From contig JAFGHO010000073.1 of NCBI GenBank assembly GCA_016930085.1, positions 1 through 33,961 on the forward strand: a stretch of 33,961 nt of DNA, given 5' to 3'. The translations under genes were made by a program, and so were the position numbers. This DNA comes from Spirochaetales bacterium (lineage in GTDB: Bacteria; Spirochaetota; Spirochaetia; SZUA-6; JAFGRV01). Position 1 is the first letter of the stretch, and each line of letters starts with the position of its first letter. Shown piece after piece: positions 1 to 27,112 of the stretch. The notes under the pieces are model-generated. The model was given only the letters and a program-made list of their open reading frames with translations, made no database searches and was not told the origin of the DNA.

Positions 1-84
1 AGATACTTTCCGTTGCCTGAAAGATACTTTCCGTTGCCTGAAAGATACTTTCCGTTGCCTGAAAGATACTTTCCGTTGCCTGAA
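1..84. repeat. 21-bp tandem repeat, four perfect copies
   Basis: Four head-to-tail identical 21-bp units, each beginning AGATACTTTCCG and ending TTGCCTGAA. The array is cut by the left edge of the window, so the true copy number may be larger. Each junction makes a small dyad, GAAAG-ATA-CTTTC. The period is a multiple of three, so the array reads through as a repeated PERYFPL peptide; I see no ribosome binding site or recognisable domain and do not call that a gene. After the fourth copy the similarity ends at AGACGG. Confidence 0.95.
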
Positions 85-357
85 AGACGGATAACGGGAC
101 CGGAAACGCAACGGCGAAAGCAAAATAAATCAGGGATTAAAGCAATTTTTTTAAGGCGGCCCGTCCCCTTACATACTATAATAGGTTCGAAAAAAAATCC
201 ATAACGCAATCTTTCTTTTCGGCAGAAAGGATAAGGACGGGGGAGAAGACCGGCAGGTATGGAAATTTTTTCCGGGGGTGTATGGATGTTGTATAATTAA
301 AGACAGTAAAAGACCGATTGATTATCCGTGATATGTTTCACTATAAAAGGGAAAAAA
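85..357 (+). other. non-coding leader before the GH16 gene
   Basis: No gene is supported here. A TATAAT hexamer at 292-297 is the only good promoter element; at 17-bp spacing the -35 position (269-274, TTTCCG) is poor. An AAGGG Shine-Dalgarno-like stretch at about 346-350 precedes the ATG at 358. Confidence 0.5.
269..297 (+). promoter_or_regulatory. candidate promoter of the GH16 gene
   Basis: Perfect -10 hexamer TATAAT at 292-297, about 60 bases before the start codon. The -35 region is weak (TTTCCG at 17-bp spacing), so an activator or an alternative sigma factor would be needed. This is inference from consensus only. Confidence 0.35.
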
Positions 358-16760: not shown

Positions 16761-18110
16761 TCAGTACCGGTACATACTTCCCCCGATAAACTCCCTGAGC
16801 AGGGAATCCCGGGGAATTACGTCGATATTCGTCCAGCCCGGAACCTGGCTGAGGAGATCGTGGACGCGCGAAGCGCGTTCGAATGCATCCTCATGTTCGC
16901 TTTTTCCCCTGAACTCGTCGATAAAGCGGGAAAACTCGTGAAAAAGAAACGATTTTAGCACGGGGAGTTCATAGGCAAGATAACTGTTTACGATCACATG
17001 GGCTGTTTTCAGTTTCGAGATGATATACCTGAGTTCAGAACGGCGGACATACCGCCAATGGGCGATCGTCTGTCTTGGATTATAGTTTCTGAACTGTTTG
17101 TCACGCACCATCCTCCGCAGCATTCTGATGTCGGACCATCGGATAAAGGCGCCCCGTTCGTCCTTTGTTTGTGAAAGCGACTCGACATATACCTTGAGTT
17201 TTTTCTCGTCGTCGATACTTTCGGTCATTTCCTCATACAACCCGTGCAGGGAATCGATGAGGAGTATATCGTTATCGTCGAGCCGTAATGTCCCCGAATG
17301 GCCTTCCTGGATGCCCTTTTTAAAATCATACCGGGGTATCGTGACCTCCCTGCCTTTGAGAAGCTCCCGAATATGCCTGTTGATAAGACCGATATCGAGT
17401 GCCTGCGGGGTTTCAAAATCATAATCGCCCGTCGAGTCCTTCGGATGCCGGTTGAGGTCGAAAAAGTAGTTGTCGATGGTAAGCGGGACGAGGGAAAATC
17501 CCCTGTCTTTCAGGATTTCCCGTATCTTGATTGTCGTCGTTGTTTTGCCCGAAGAGGAAGGTCCGGCGATAATGATTATTTTGAGTTTGTCTTTGCGTTT
17601 CTCGATTTCGCCCACGGCATACTCGATTTCGGACCCATAAAAGAGTTCCGATTTTCGTATGAGGCTTTCGAATCGGTTTGCTTTGACATAATCATGAAGC
17701 TGGGACAATCTCACGCAATCTCCGTCCACGGCCCAGGAGAGTGTCTGCCACAGTTTTTTGTAAGGTATATTTTCCGAAGAATAGGTGAGGCTTTGTTTTC
17801 CCATCCGCTTGAGGGCGTGTTCGTAACGGTAGAGGATGTATGCCTTTGCTGTTTTTGCGTGGCCCCGTTCGATAAGGCTTTTTTCGACAATATCCTGTAC
17901 TTCCTCGACGGCGGGATATGTCCCTTTGAATGTCCGTTGTTGAAGCAGTCCGATGACATCGTCGGTAATCCGCTCCGCGATATCACGGTCCCTGCCGCCT
18001 ACCGCGACCGCCGCCTGCAGGATGGCAAAAGTTATTTTTCTCCTGTCAAAATCGACGATCTTTCCGTCCCGTTTGATAATTTTCGTCAACGCTTCTTTCT
18101 TTTCCGCCAT
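16761..18110 (-). CDS. ATP-cone / uridine kinase-like fusion
   Basis: A 449-residue protein. Residues 8-105 form an ATP-cone domain (IIKRDGKIVDFD start, EEVQDIVEKSLIERGH, YILYRYEHAL end), the nucleotide-sensing module best known from ribonucleotide reductases and NrdR. After a helical linker (about 110-170) comes a P-loop kinase domain of the uridine kinase/phosphoribulokinase superfamily with Walker A GPSSSGKT at 183-190, TIDNYFFDL at 211-219, DFETPQALD, PRYDF (259-263) and DILLIDSLHG (281-290). Known uridine kinases phosphorylate uridine and cytidine; the ATP-cone suggests allosteric control by ATP/dATP. Which nucleoside (or other substrate) is used here is inference. It is first of a three-gene unit with M32 and the membrane protein. 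Confidence 0.85.
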   Translation of the reverse strand: MAEKKEALTKIIKRDGKIVDFDRRKITFAILQAAVAVGGRDRDIAERITDDVIGLLQQRTFKGTYPAVEEVQDIVEKSLIERGHAKTAKAYILYRYEHALKRMGKQSLTYSSENIPYKKLWQTLSWAVDGDCVRLSQLHDYVKANRFESLIRKSELFYGSEIEYAVGEIEKRKDKLKIIIIAGPSSSGKTTTTIKIREILKDRGFSLVPLTIDNYFFDLNRHPKDSTGDYDFETPQALDIGLINRHIRELLKGREVTIPRYDFKKGIQEGHSGTLRLDDNDILLIDSLHGLYEEMTESIDDEKKLKVYVESLSQTKDERGAFIRWSDIRMLRRMVRDKQFRNYNPRQTIAHWRYVRRSELRYIISKLKTAHVIVNSYLAYELPVLKSFLFHEFSRFIDEFRGKSEHEDAFERASRVHDLLSQVPGWTNIDVIPRDSLLREFIGGSMYRY

Positions 18111-20293: not shown

Positions 20294-20322
20294 TTGACTA
20301 AACAGGCATGATAAGGTATATT
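20294..20322 (+). promoter_or_regulatory. promoter of the citrate-synthase-like gene row
   Basis: -35 TTGACT (20294-20299), exact 17-base spacer, -10 TATATT (20317-20322). The predicted start of transcription is near 20329, about 80 bases before the ATG at 20411. Confidence 0.7.
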
Positions 20323-20410: not shown

Positions 20411-22195
20411 ATGTTACATGAAGGTAGCGTCAAAAAATACAGAAAGCGTCTGCTGAATATAGCACTCATGCCGAATCTCTACAGGGACATTTTCCCTTAT
20501 GACGAGCCGCCCCGGCTTGAATACGATAATGTTATCGTTCCACTCCGCATCCCCGACTCCATCTGGATTACGGACACGACATTCCGTGACGGTCAGCAGT
20601 CCCAGCCTCCTTTTTCCGTCAATGAAATCGCCACAATTTACGATTATTTTCATAAATTGGGGGGAAAGGCGGGGATCATCCGCCAGTGCGAATTCTTTCT
20701 CTACAGCGACAAGGACAGAAAAGCGGTCGAGGAATGCCTCGAGCTGGGATACATGTACCCGGAAATTACCGGCTGGATAAGGGCGGTGAAGGCGGATTTC
20801 CAGCTTGTGAAACAGATGGGTCTCAAGGAAACAGGAATCCTCACCTCCGCATCGGATTACCATATCTACCTGAAATTGAAAAGCAGCCGCGGTGAAATAA
20901 TGGAACAGTACCTCGATGTCGTCAGGGAAGCCCTGAACGAAGGGATTGTTCCGCGCTGTCATTTCGAAGATATTACGAGGGCGGATATCTACGGCTTTGT
21001 CATCCCGTTCGCCCAGGAACTCATGAAGTTACGCGAGGAAAGCGGGATCAATATAAAGATACGGCTTTGCGATACCCTCGGGTTCGCCGATCCGAATCCC
21101 GCCTGCGTTTTACCCCGGTCCGTTCCGAAACTCGTCCATGCGATGATCTCGGAGGCGGGTGTGCCCTCCGAATGCCTCGAATGGCACGGCCACAACGATT
21201 TTCACAAGGTTCACGCGAACTCCACGGCCGCGTGGCTTTACGGGTGTTCGGCGGTCAATTCGGCGATATTCGGTATCGGCGAGCGGACGGGTAACTCCCC
21301 CCTCGAAGCCCTCATTATCGAATATATTTCCATCAAGGGGCCCGATCCCCGCATCGACGTTTCCATGATTACCGAGCTTGCCCGTTATTTTGAAAAGCAC
21401 CTGCACAAGGATATTCCGGATAATTACCCCTTTGTGGGAAAGGATTTCAATGTCACGCGGGCGGGGATTCACGCAGACGGTATGATAAAGAACGAGGAGA
21501 TATACAATATATTCGACACGGAAAAGCTTCTGAACCGGCCGATCGGTGTGCTTATCACTGACAAATCCGGAATAGCGGGTATTGCCTGGTGGCTCAACGC
21601 CCAGCTTCAGCTTCCGCCCGAAGGGCGTATCGACAAACATCATCCCGGTGTCAAGAAAATCTACGACTGGGTCGTCGGACAGTATAACGACGGGAGGTCG
21701 GTCGGTATATCCGACGAGGAGATGATGTGGCTTGCCAGAAAATTCCTCCCCGACTACTTTGAAAGCGATTTCGACCGCCTCAAGGAAAAGGTGAGAAGCG
21801 TCGCGGCCGATGTCATTCAGCCGCTCAGAAAACATCCGGATCTGATTGCGCGTGATGAAACACGGATCGAACTGCTTCTCCAGAAAATCATCGAGGAAAA
21901 TCCCTTTATCCAGCTCATTCTTTTCACAGACCCCAAAGGCCACCGGATGATCCATAATATCACCCAGGTAACGGACAAGGACAAATATCTCAATTTTACC
22001 AATGACGATTTTGCCGCCAGCGACTGGTTTATCAAGCCCAATGAAGACGGGAAGATCCATGTCACGGACCTCTATGTATCACGATTCACGGGAAGACTCT
22101 GCATTACCGTTTCAACACCGGTATTCGATGAAGAGGAAAACATGATCGGTATTATCGCCTTCGATATCAAGTTTGAAGAAGCGGTGAAGCTGTAG
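20411..22195 (+). CDS. Re-citrate synthase-like HMGL enzyme fused to a C-terminal Cache/PDC sensor-like domain
   Basis: A 594-residue cytosolic protein. Residues about 48-345 form the HMGL-type TIM barrel of the isopropylmalate/homocitrate/Re-citrate synthase group: DTTFRDGQQ (55-63, metal and substrate D60), HGHND (259-263) and GERTGNSPLE (290-299). FVGKDFNVTRAGIHADG (341-357) follows. From memory these match best the Re-citrate synthase type described in Clostridium kluyveri, which makes citrate from acetyl-CoA and oxaloacetate. Residues about 475-594 are different: an IQLILFTDPKG strand, DWFIKPNEDGKIHVTDLYVS, GRLCITVSTPVFDEEENMIG and IIAFDIKFEE, the hallmarks of one PDC/Cache sensor domain, usually extracytoplasmic in chemoreceptors and kinases. 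No membrane segment exists, so here it would be an intracellular allosteric domain. GGGA lies 6-7 bases before the ATG. First gene of a three-gene row. Confidence 0.8.
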   Translation: MLHEGSVKKYRKRLLNIALMPNLYRDIFPYDEPPRLEYDNVIVPLRIPDSIWITDTTFRDGQQSQPPFSVNEIATIYDYFHKLGGKAGIIRQCEFFLYSDKDRKAVEECLELGYMYPEITGWIRAVKADFQLVKQMGLKETGILTSASDYHIYLKLKSSRGEIMEQYLDVVREALNEGIVPRCHFEDITRADIYGFVIPFAQELMKLREESGINIKIRLCDTLGFADPNPACVLPRSVPKLVHAMISEAGVPSECLEWHGHNDFHKVHANSTAAWLYGCSAVNSAIFGIGERTGNSPLEALIIEYISIKGPDPRIDVSMITELARYFEKHLHKDIPDNYPFVGKDFNVTRAGIHADGMIKNEEIYNIFDTEKLLNRPIGVLITDKSGIAGIAWWLNAQLQLPPEGRIDKHHPGVKKIYDWVVGQYNDGRSVGISDEEMMWLARKFLPDYFESDFDRLKEKVRSVAADVIQPLRKHPDLIARDETRIELLLQKIIEENPFIQLILFTDPKGHRMIHNITQVTDKDKYLNFTNDDFAASDWFIKPNEDGKIHVTDLYVSRFTGRLCITVSTPVFDEEENMIGIIAFDIKFEEAVKL

Positions 22196-25933: not shown

Positions 25934-27112
25934 CTATAATTCCGCAACGATGAGGATGGCATCGTCGATGCAATCCGAATAATCGCCGATTATCTCTCCT
26001 TCGACGGATTCCTTGTTTTTAATTATTTTTTGTTTCAATGCTTCGGGTTTCAATGCCATATGTTCCCTCAATATCCCGACAAGACTCTGTTCGCAAAAAC
26101 GTTCGCCGCAGTCATCCAGCCATGCATAGATGCCGTCGGTAAAGAGGACGAGTTTGTCCCCCTTTTCAATGGAAACTGACGAAACTTCATATTCGGTATT
26201 GAGGTTGATGCAGAGGGGAATACCGTCGTTCTTGAGTCTGAAGATTTTATCCCGTTTGGGTGAAAGGAGGTACTGCGCGGGATGTCCCGCCGTCGAGTAG
26301 ACGAGTCTGTTCGATTGTTCGTCGACCCAGGCGGCAAAGGAGGTAAAGAACATATTCTCGAGAAAATAGGGCTGCAGTTCTGTGTTGATGCCTTCGATGA
26401 GTTCCGCCGGCCCCTTCGATGAAAACACCTGGTGGCGCAACGACAGCTTGAACATAATGGAGAGAAAAGCCGCGTGCACGTTGTGCCCGCTGCCGTCCGC
26501 GATAACAAAGGCGGTTGTCAGGTCATTGATCGGAATTATATCGAAGAGGTCTCCGCCGATCTTTTTGGCAAAGGCATAATACACGCTCGTTCTCTTCGCC
26601 CATTTATCCGGTATATTCTGCTGAATGATCCGCCGCTGAATGTTCGCCGAAATTTCAAGCTCTTCATCGATTTCAAGCAGGGCCCGCTGGAGTTCGTCCC
26701 TCAAAGCGCCGATCCTGATGCGCGCCTGGTTTCTTTCGAGTGCGTAGAGAATGACCCTCTCCAGTACACGGCTGTCCGCCTGGCCTTTGACGAGGTAATC
26801 CTGCGCGCCTTCCTGGACGGCCTTTATCGCCAGTTCTTCGTCGGTGAGTCCGGAGAGGACAACGATCGGTGTTTCAGGGGCGAGCGAATTCGTCCGGCGG
26901 ACCGTTTCGAGCCCCGTTGCATCCGGAAGCGTCAGATCGAGGATAATAAGATCGAAGGTACGCTCTTTGAACCGGTCGATCAGTTCGCTCATGCGGACGA
27001 CGTGTTCGATGGTGGCGCCGATTTTTTCGCTTTCGGAAAGAGCTTCCTTGATTAGGCGCGCATCGCCCGGATTGTCTTCAACCAAAATGATATTGATGTC
27101 GTGAGTTTTCAC
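25934..27112 (-). CDS. response regulator with SpoIIE-type PP2C phosphatase output
   Basis: A 392-residue two-domain signalling protein. The receiver domain (6-125) has the acidic pair E12/D13, phospho-acceptor D59 in LIILDLTLP, VVLSG with the conserved Ser/Thr position, and K110 in DYLVKG. A coiled-coil linker (about 130-165, DELQRALLEIDEELEISANIQRR) leads to the PP2C/SpoIIE domain with metal-binding GGDLFD (187-192), ADGSGH (206-211), AGHPAQYLL and a terminal DDAILIV. It would dephosphorylate a Ser/Thr-phosphoprotein, such as an anti-anti-sigma factor, when the receiver is phosphorylated. Neither sensor kinase nor STAS protein is in this window. The start is GTG with AGGAAG upstream, and a TGTTACC/GGTAACA dyad sits just before it. 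Confidence 0.92.
   Translation of the reverse strand: MKTHDINIILVEDNPGDARLIKEALSESEKIGATIEHVVRMSELIDRFKERTFDLIILDLTLPDATGLETVRRTNSLAPETPIVVLSGLTDEELAIKAVQEGAQDYLVKGQADSRVLERVILYALERNQARIRIGALRDELQRALLEIDEELEISANIQRRIIQQNIPDKWAKRTSVYYAFAKKIGGDLFDIIPINDLTTAFVIADGSGHNVHAAFLSIMFKLSLRHQVFSSKGPAELIEGINTELQPYFLENMFFTSFAAWVDEQSNRLVYSTAGHPAQYLLSPKRDKIFRLKNDGIPLCINLNTEYEVSSVSIEKGDKLVLFTDGIYAWLDDCGERFCEQSLVGILREHMALKPEALKQKIIKNKESVEGEIIGDYSDCIDDAILIVAEL

What the first reader, a model, noticed from the sequence alone, without database searches (positions are those of the whole stretch)
20411..22195. Re-citrate-synthase-like enzyme fused to an intracellular Cache/PDC sensor domain
The N-terminal 450 residues carry an intact HMGL-type condensing enzyme most like Re-citrate synthase. 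The last 120 residues read as one PDC/Cache domain (DWFIKP, GKIHVTDLYVS, ITVSTPVFDEE, GIIAFDIKFEE), a ligand-sensing fold normally placed outside the membrane in receptors. There is no membrane segment. This suggests an allosteric carbon- or amino-acid-sensing metabolic enzyme in which a chemoreceptor-type pocket replaces the LeuA-dimer regulatory domain.
Basis: partly seen in the sequence, partly recalled or inferred. Interest (0 to 1): 0.85.

Follow-up and report, generated by a model that had tools for sequence, protein, structure and literature searches.

The report
Citrate synthase fused to sensor domain
This gene encodes the unusual Re-type citrate synthase of anaerobic bacteria, carrying inside the cell a sensor domain that is normally found on the outside of chemoreceptors; the fusion is widespread, appears undescribed, and suggests that a chemoreceptor-like pocket regulates the entry of carbon into glutamate synthesis.

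Summary
In detail: ORF 20411-22195 (+) encodes 594 aa, an HMGL-type barrel (PF00682, E 2e-31) plus one C-terminal PDC/Cache domain (PF22673, E 1.5e-13). AlphaFold models both confidently (pLDDT 91-93). There is no membrane segment and no LeuA-dimer domain. The fusion is not a one-off: at least 80 full-length homologues occur in Desulfobacterota, Nitrospirota, Spirochaetota, Omnitrophota, Lentisphaerota and Elusimicrobiota, and barrel-only forms of about 450 aa also exist. The barrel forms its own clade apart from isopropylmalate, citramalate and homocitrate synthases. Three lines identify it as the citrate synthase. Across 197 Desulfobacterota genomes it and the ordinary Si-citrate synthase nearly exclude each other (82 homologue only, 84 Si only, 15 both). 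In several lineages it sits beside aconitase and isocitrate dehydrogenase. The window's genome has aconitase and isocitrate dehydrogenase but no Si-citrate synthase and no nitrogenase. In 70 of 82 Cache domains the positions that bind amino acids in chemoreceptors (Arg-x-Trp-aromatic, Tyr, Asp) are kept; the window's own clade has Ser for the Arg. Best reading: a Re-citrate synthase under allosteric control by a cytoplasmic Cache domain. Ligand and allostery are inferred, not shown. New variant of a known kind.

The parts
20411..22195 (+). Re-citrate-synthase-type enzyme with a C-terminal Cache domain, 594 aa (stop codon included)
20468..21766 (+). Enzyme part, residues 20-452: HMGL-type TIM barrel plus helical linker region. 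Family signature D55-TTFRDGQQ-63, metal/catalytic H259-GHND and GER-x-GN
   Evidence: PF00682 at 52-325; AlphaFold secondary structure and pLDDT; invariant columns; motif comparison with HCS, IPMS and CMS
21767..21832 (+). Long helix, residues 453-474, joining the enzyme to the Cache domain
   Evidence: AlphaFold/DSSP helix 453-474
21842..22192 (+). Single PDC/Cache domain, residues 478-594
   Evidence: PF22673; model pLDDT 92.7; Foldseek to KinD, Mlp24, Tlp3, YkuI; profile hits to Tlp3, KinD, PctA
22019..22030 (+). Pocket segment S537-D538-W539-F540 (Arg at 537 in 71 of 82 relatives; aligns with R126-x-W128-Y129 of PctA)
22067..22081 (+). Pocket segment D553-L-Y555-V-S557 (Y555 aligns with Y144 of PctA; S557 invariant)
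22163..22165 (+). D585, invariant in 82 of 82; aligns with the ligand-binding D173 of PctA
20294..20322 (+). Promoter-like site (TTGACT-17-TATATT) upstream of the gene; consensus match only

Best explanation
The gene encodes the organism's citrate synthase, of the Re type that evolved from the homocitrate/isopropylmalate synthase family. It condenses acetyl-CoA with oxaloacetate, feeding aconitase and isocitrate dehydrogenase to make 2-oxoglutarate and glutamate in an anaerobe (reaction inferred from context and kinship). A cytoplasmic Cache domain at its C-terminus is joined by a long helix to the helical linker region of the enzyme. It most likely binds a small metabolite, in most family members probably an alpha-amino acid or similar compound of the glutamate branch, and passes the bound state through that helix to the active sites of the dimer. 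This would be feedback control comparable to leucine on LeuA, built from a chemoreceptor-type pocket. Shown here: domain architecture, fold, family-wide conservation, near-exclusion with Si-citrate synthase, pathway context. Inferred: stereochemistry, ligand, allostery.
For: Domains and fold. Own clade apart from IPMS, CMS and HCS, branch 96*, with signature DGQQ instead of DGEQ plus E94 and H184. No NCBIfam IPMS, HCS or CMS cut-off is reached; best is 147 bits against 463. The own genome has separate LeuA and citramalate-synthase-type genes, aconitase- and isocitrate-dehydrogenase-family genes, no Si-citrate synthase and no nifD. In 197 Desulfobacterota genomes of at least 90% completeness, 82 have the homologue only, 84 Si-citrate synthase only, 15 both, 16 neither, Fisher p 2e-23. 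In other genomes with the homologue only 13 of 50 have Si-citrate synthase. Fusion followed by aconitase-family and isocitrate dehydrogenase genes in L041, and by one or both in L058, L047, L059, L070 and others. Barrel-only Brocadiaceae relative L083 is 61% identical to this barrel; the Kuenenia candidate is 55.1% identical to C. kluyveri Re-citrate synthase, and 13C data show oxidative synthesis of 2-oxoglutarate there (PMC8027424). Thermodesulfatator indicus has a Re-CS homologue and makes 2-oxoglutarate oxidatively (PMC12743299); Thermodesulfatator sp. L010 carries the fusion. Pocket positions R-x-W-F/Y, Y, D kept in 70 of 82, aligned with amino-acid chemoreceptors PctA and Tlp3.
Against: No activity or binding data. 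The window's own pocket has Ser at the Arg position, as do its four nearest relatives; another spirochaete clade has His. Siblings G001, G002 and G003 have both the fusion and Si-citrate synthase, and the window genome is 96% complete, so the absence of Si-citrate synthase there could be a gap. Standalone barrels exist without the domain in many genomes, so it is probably dispensable to catalysis. pTM of 0.75 leaves the domain arrangement uncertain. In this window the gene is not next to aconitase or isocitrate dehydrogenase. The counts across Desulfobacterota are not corrected for kinship.
Confidence: 0.7

Rival explanations
1. The enzyme is a Re-citrate synthase, but the Cache domain binds a carboxylate or keto acid (pyruvate, 2-oxoglutarate, citrate, malate) and not an amino acid.
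For: The nearest fold is the sensor of KinD, solved with pyruvate; CitA with citrate and DctB with malonate also match. The window's clade lacks the Arg of the amino-acid motif.
Against: D585, which contacts the amine side of ligands in amino-acid and amine receptors, is invariant in 82 of 82; KinD has no Asp there in the alignments. The full pattern is kept in 70 of 82.
Confidence: 0.3
2. The Cache domain is a purely structural or oligomerisation module with no ligand.
For: Standalone forms exist, and the domain has been lost or gained several times (7 changes, at least 3 forced). Cache and PAS domains often dimerise (general knowledge).
Against: The invariant residues of the domain include those that align with the ligand pocket of chemoreceptors (W539, D585). 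Purifying selection acts on both halves.
Confidence: 0.2
3. The barrel is a homocitrate, citramalate or isopropylmalate synthase and not a citrate synthase.
For: It belongs to the same HMGL superfamily; best NCBIfam match is nifV, best fold match a homocitrate synthase.
Against: All curated cut-offs are missed by far. The clade is separate. LeuA- and CimA-type paralogues are already in the genome. No nifD. Near-exclusion with Si-citrate synthase and neighbouring aconitase and isocitrate dehydrogenase.
Confidence: 0.06
4. The fusion is an assembly or frame artefact.
For: None beyond the draft state of the genome.
Against: Continuous frame without stops, and the same junction in more than 80 independent genomes of several phyla.
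Confidence: 0.01

Closest known systems
Re-citrate synthase of the Clostridium kluyveri / Syntrophus aciditrophicus type (Li 2007; Kim 2013; originals not held, cited through PMC12016533)
   Same: HMGL barrel related to homocitrate and isopropylmalate synthases, takes the place of Si-citrate synthase in anaerobes; the barrel-only Brocadiaceae member L083 is 61% identical
   Different: A Cache domain is added at the C-terminus; it is not mentioned in the papers that could be searched. Whether the S. aciditrophicus enzyme itself carries it could not be checked; from memory its reported subunit mass of about 72 kDa would fit, which is a lead only.
LeuA-type 2-isopropylmalate synthase with its LeuA_dimer regulatory domain
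   Same: Condensing barrel followed by a C-terminal domain that controls activity by binding an end product
   Different: Barrel only about 28% identical; the C-terminal domain is a Cache fold, not LeuA_dimer
YkuI (EAL protein with C-terminal YkuI_C domain)
   Same: Cytoplasmic TIM-barrel enzyme with a C-terminal Cache-like domain; matched by fold (2bas), profile and weakly by Pfam. PMC4822843 names YkuI_C and Diacid_rec as the two mainly intracellular Cache families.
   Different: A c-di-GMP signalling protein, not a primary metabolic enzyme; different barrel family
dCache_1AA amino-acid chemoreceptor sensors (PctA, Tlp3, Mlp24)
   Same: Pocket positions R-x-W-aromatic, Tyr, Asp align in most family members; 11 of 82, mostly Desulfovibrio, also keep the aromatic five residues before the Arg
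   Different: One Cache module, not two; cytoplasmic; fused to an enzyme; the window's own copy lacks the Arg

Membership tests
Re-citrate synthase (C. kluyveri type) | HMGL-type barrel in a clade separate from IPMS, CMS and HCS | tested here: met
   96* branch, quick tree with some long outgroup branches
Re-citrate synthase (C. kluyveri type) | Close sequence kinship to a biochemically proven Re-citrate synthase | tested here: inconclusive
   Proven sequences could not be fetched. Indirect: L083 (Brocadiaceae) 61% identical; the Kuenenia candidate is 55.1% identical to C. kluyveri Re-CS (PMC8027424)
Re-citrate synthase (C. kluyveri type) | Stands in for Si-citrate synthase in genomes with aconitase and isocitrate dehydrogenase | tested here: met
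   Fisher p 2e-23 in 197 genomes; own genome; operons. PMC8542988 reports either type but never both in Omnitrophota MAGs
Re-citrate synthase (C. kluyveri type) | Re-face citrate formation from acetyl-CoA and oxaloacetate | not testable with these tools
   needs an enzyme assay
2-isopropylmalate synthase (LeuA) | C-terminal LeuA_dimer domain | tested here: not met
   no Pfam hit; Cache domain instead
2-isopropylmalate synthase (LeuA) | Curated NCBIfam cut-off reached | tested here: not met
   136 bits or less against 517 or more; a true LeuA is elsewhere in the genome (L003)
NifV / homocitrate synthase | TIGR02660 or TIGR02146 cut-off; nitrogenase in the genome (NifV) | tested here: not met
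   147 against 462.9 and 106 against 413.6 bits; no nifD in G000
Cache/PDC sensor superfamily | PDC fold and profile match over cut-off | tested here: met
   PF22673 51.6 against 27 bits; Foldseek
Cache/PDC sensor superfamily | Extracytoplasmic location (typical, not universal) | tested here: not met
   no membrane segment; fused to a metabolic enzyme
dCache_1AA amino-acid sensor | AA motif (PctA Y121, R126, W128, Y144, D173) | tested here: not met
   Window: D, S, W, Y, D. Family: R/K-W-F/Y-Y/F-D in 70 of 82, with the first aromatic in 11

The most novel reading that the evidence does not exclude
A chemoreceptor-type amino-acid pocket, moved into the cytoplasm, is the feedback sensor of citrate synthesis across many anaerobic phyla: free glutamate, glutamine or a related amino acid would bind the Cache domain and set flux into the oxidative branch, with clade-specific ligand changes (Arg to Ser in the window's clade, Arg to His in another).
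Probability: 0.35. Interest if true: 0.8.

Novelty: new variant of a known kind. Interest (0 to 1): 0.64.

Why it matters
Cache domains are known as the main extracellular sensors of prokaryotes; mainly intracellular Cache families are rare exceptions (PMC4822843). A conserved fusion to a central-metabolism enzyme would show that the same pocket serves as an allosteric regulator of primary metabolism. It also gives a ready test of how anaerobes that use Re-citrate synthase regulate the entry of carbon into 2-oxoglutarate and glutamate synthesis. The two domains can be assayed apart, and natural versions with and without the Cache domain exist for comparison.

Tried and rejected
Artefact or frame-fusion reading: rejected by recurrence in many phyla. 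LeuA, NifV and citramalate readings: rejected by profile cut-offs, tree and genome content. Membrane location: rejected. Riboswitch or known RNA in the leader: none. Papers joining Re-citrate synthase or homocitrate synthase with Cache domains: none found in the held library; the original Re-citrate synthase papers are not held. Simple mutual exclusion does not hold in the window's own family, where siblings have both enzymes.

Full report
Observation. The ORF at 20411-22195 (+) encodes 594 aa. Residues 52-325 match HMGL-like (PF00682, E 1.9e-31). Residues 487-589 match MCP-like_PDC_1 (PF22673, E 1.5e-13, over its cut-off); dCache_1 matches below its cut-off. There is no LeuA_dimer match and no membrane segment. 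AlphaFold, with 85 homologues, gives pLDDT 91 for the whole protein and 92.7 for the C-terminal part alone. Foldseek puts the enzyme part with homocitrate and isopropylmalate synthases and the C-terminal part with Cache sensors: KinD first, then Mlp24, Tlp3, Mlp37, YkuI and CitA. A helix at 453-474 connects the two, in the place where the long N-terminal helix of Cache domains lies.

Distribution. The best 80 loci in bacterial and archaeal genomes are mostly full-length fusions at 49-80% identity, from Desulfobacterota, Nitrospirota, Omnitrophota, Spirochaetota, Lentisphaerota, Elusimicrobiota, Fibrobacterota and others. 82 of 85 aligned members have the PDC domain by Pfam. Of 97 Desulfobacterota genomes with a homologue, 94 have the fusion. 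Planctomycetota and part of the Spirochaetota have barrel-only forms of about 450-490 aa. In the tree fused and barrel-only members are mixed: 7 changes, at least 3 forced by starred branches. The fusion is therefore old and was lost or gained several times; direction cannot be told.

Which enzyme. The family is one clade apart from characterised citramalate, isopropylmalate and homocitrate synthases (96*; quick tree, some long outgroup branches). It has its own signature (TTFRDGQQ instead of TLRDGEQ, E94, H184) and keeps the H-G-H-N-D and GER-x-GN residues. No curated NCBIfam model reaches its cut-off. In the window's genome, LeuA- and citramalate-synthase-type genes lie elsewhere, aconitase-family and isocitrate-dehydrogenase-family genes are present, and Si-citrate synthase and nifD are not found.

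In 197 Desulfobacterota genomes (at least 90% complete) the homologue and Si-citrate synthase nearly exclude each other: 82 homologue only, 84 Si only, 15 both, 16 neither; Fisher p 2e-23, not corrected for kinship. Of 50 genomes behind the named loci only 13 have Si-citrate synthase. PMC8542988 reports the same either-or pattern for Omnitrophota MAGs. In relatives the next genes are often aconitase-family (13 loci) and isocitrate-dehydrogenase-family (11 loci) genes, always on the same strand. NCBIfam names NADP isocitrate dehydrogenase in L041 and aconitase in L047 and L058 over their cut-offs.

The link to proven enzymes is indirect. The Kuenenia candidate is 55.1% identical to C. kluyveri Re-citrate synthase, and labelling shows oxidative 2-oxoglutarate synthesis there, though the authors ask for biochemical proof and saw Si-type labelling from acetate, which they ascribe to another organism (PMC8027424). 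A Brocadiaceae relative is 61% identical to this barrel. Thermodesulfatator indicus has a Re-CS homologue and oxidative 2-oxoglutarate synthesis (PMC12743299), and a Thermodesulfatator MAG (L010) has the fusion.

What the Cache domain may do. Over 82 fusions W539, S557, L563 and D585 are invariant and F540 and T566 nearly so; R537 is present in 87%, D553 and Y555 in about 83%. A profile of the domain finds amino-acid chemoreceptors in the PDB (Tlp3 1e-10, PctA 5e-7, PctC, PctB, Mlp24) besides KinD (4e-10). The alignment places R537-x-W539-F540 on R126-x-W128-Y129 and D585 on D173 of PctA (residue roles from PMC10104139). 70 of 82 keep R/K, W, F/Y, Y/F and D at these positions; 11, mostly Desulfovibrio, also keep the first aromatic residue. 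The window and its four closest relatives have Ser at the Arg position, other spirochaetes His, so the ligand may differ between clades. Amino-acid binding is therefore a fair prediction for the family and a weaker one for this protein.

Mechanism. In this enzyme class helical linker regions cover the active site of the partner protomer, and end products act through C-terminal domains (general knowledge of LeuA). A Cache domain on a rigid helix at this place could act in the same way. This is inference.

Novelty. No paper in the held library joins these terms, but the library lacks the original Re-citrate synthase papers, and domain databases necessarily show the two Pfam domains together. The enzyme is a known kind; the regulatory architecture is a variant that seems undescribed. 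YkuI is the nearest precedent for a cytoplasmic enzyme with a C-terminal Cache-like domain (PMC4822843).

Noticed in passing
L122:409-1905 (genome G030, same class): A soluble-looking methyl-accepting (MCPsignal) protein whose C-terminal ~130 residues are the closest non-enzyme match to this Cache domain (E 1e-18); possibly another cytoplasmic C-terminal Cache domain.
   Followed up: partly
L006, L007, L009, L011, L015, L020 and others, upstream of the fusion: A gene read by eye as aspartyl-tRNA synthetase lies upstream of the fusion on the same strand in 35 of 76 loci, with a hisS-like gene before it in 23.
   Followed up: no
L171 (Deinococcus wulumuqiensis plasmid pDrdI) 2694-5272: A 39% identical barrel-only homologue stands divergently next to a citrate/2-methylcitrate synthase gene.
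   Followed up: no
L149/L155 genomes (G469, G434): Both a fused and a barrel-only copy occur in the same genome, useful for comparing the two forms.
   Followed up: no
window 1-87: Four perfect copies of a 21-base tandem repeat at the very start of the contig.
   Followed up: no
window 25934-27112 (-): Response-regulator receiver fused to a SpoIIE-type phosphatase.
   Followed up: no
window 16761-18110 (-): ATP-cone domain fused to a uridine-kinase/phosphoribulokinase-type domain.
   Followed up: no
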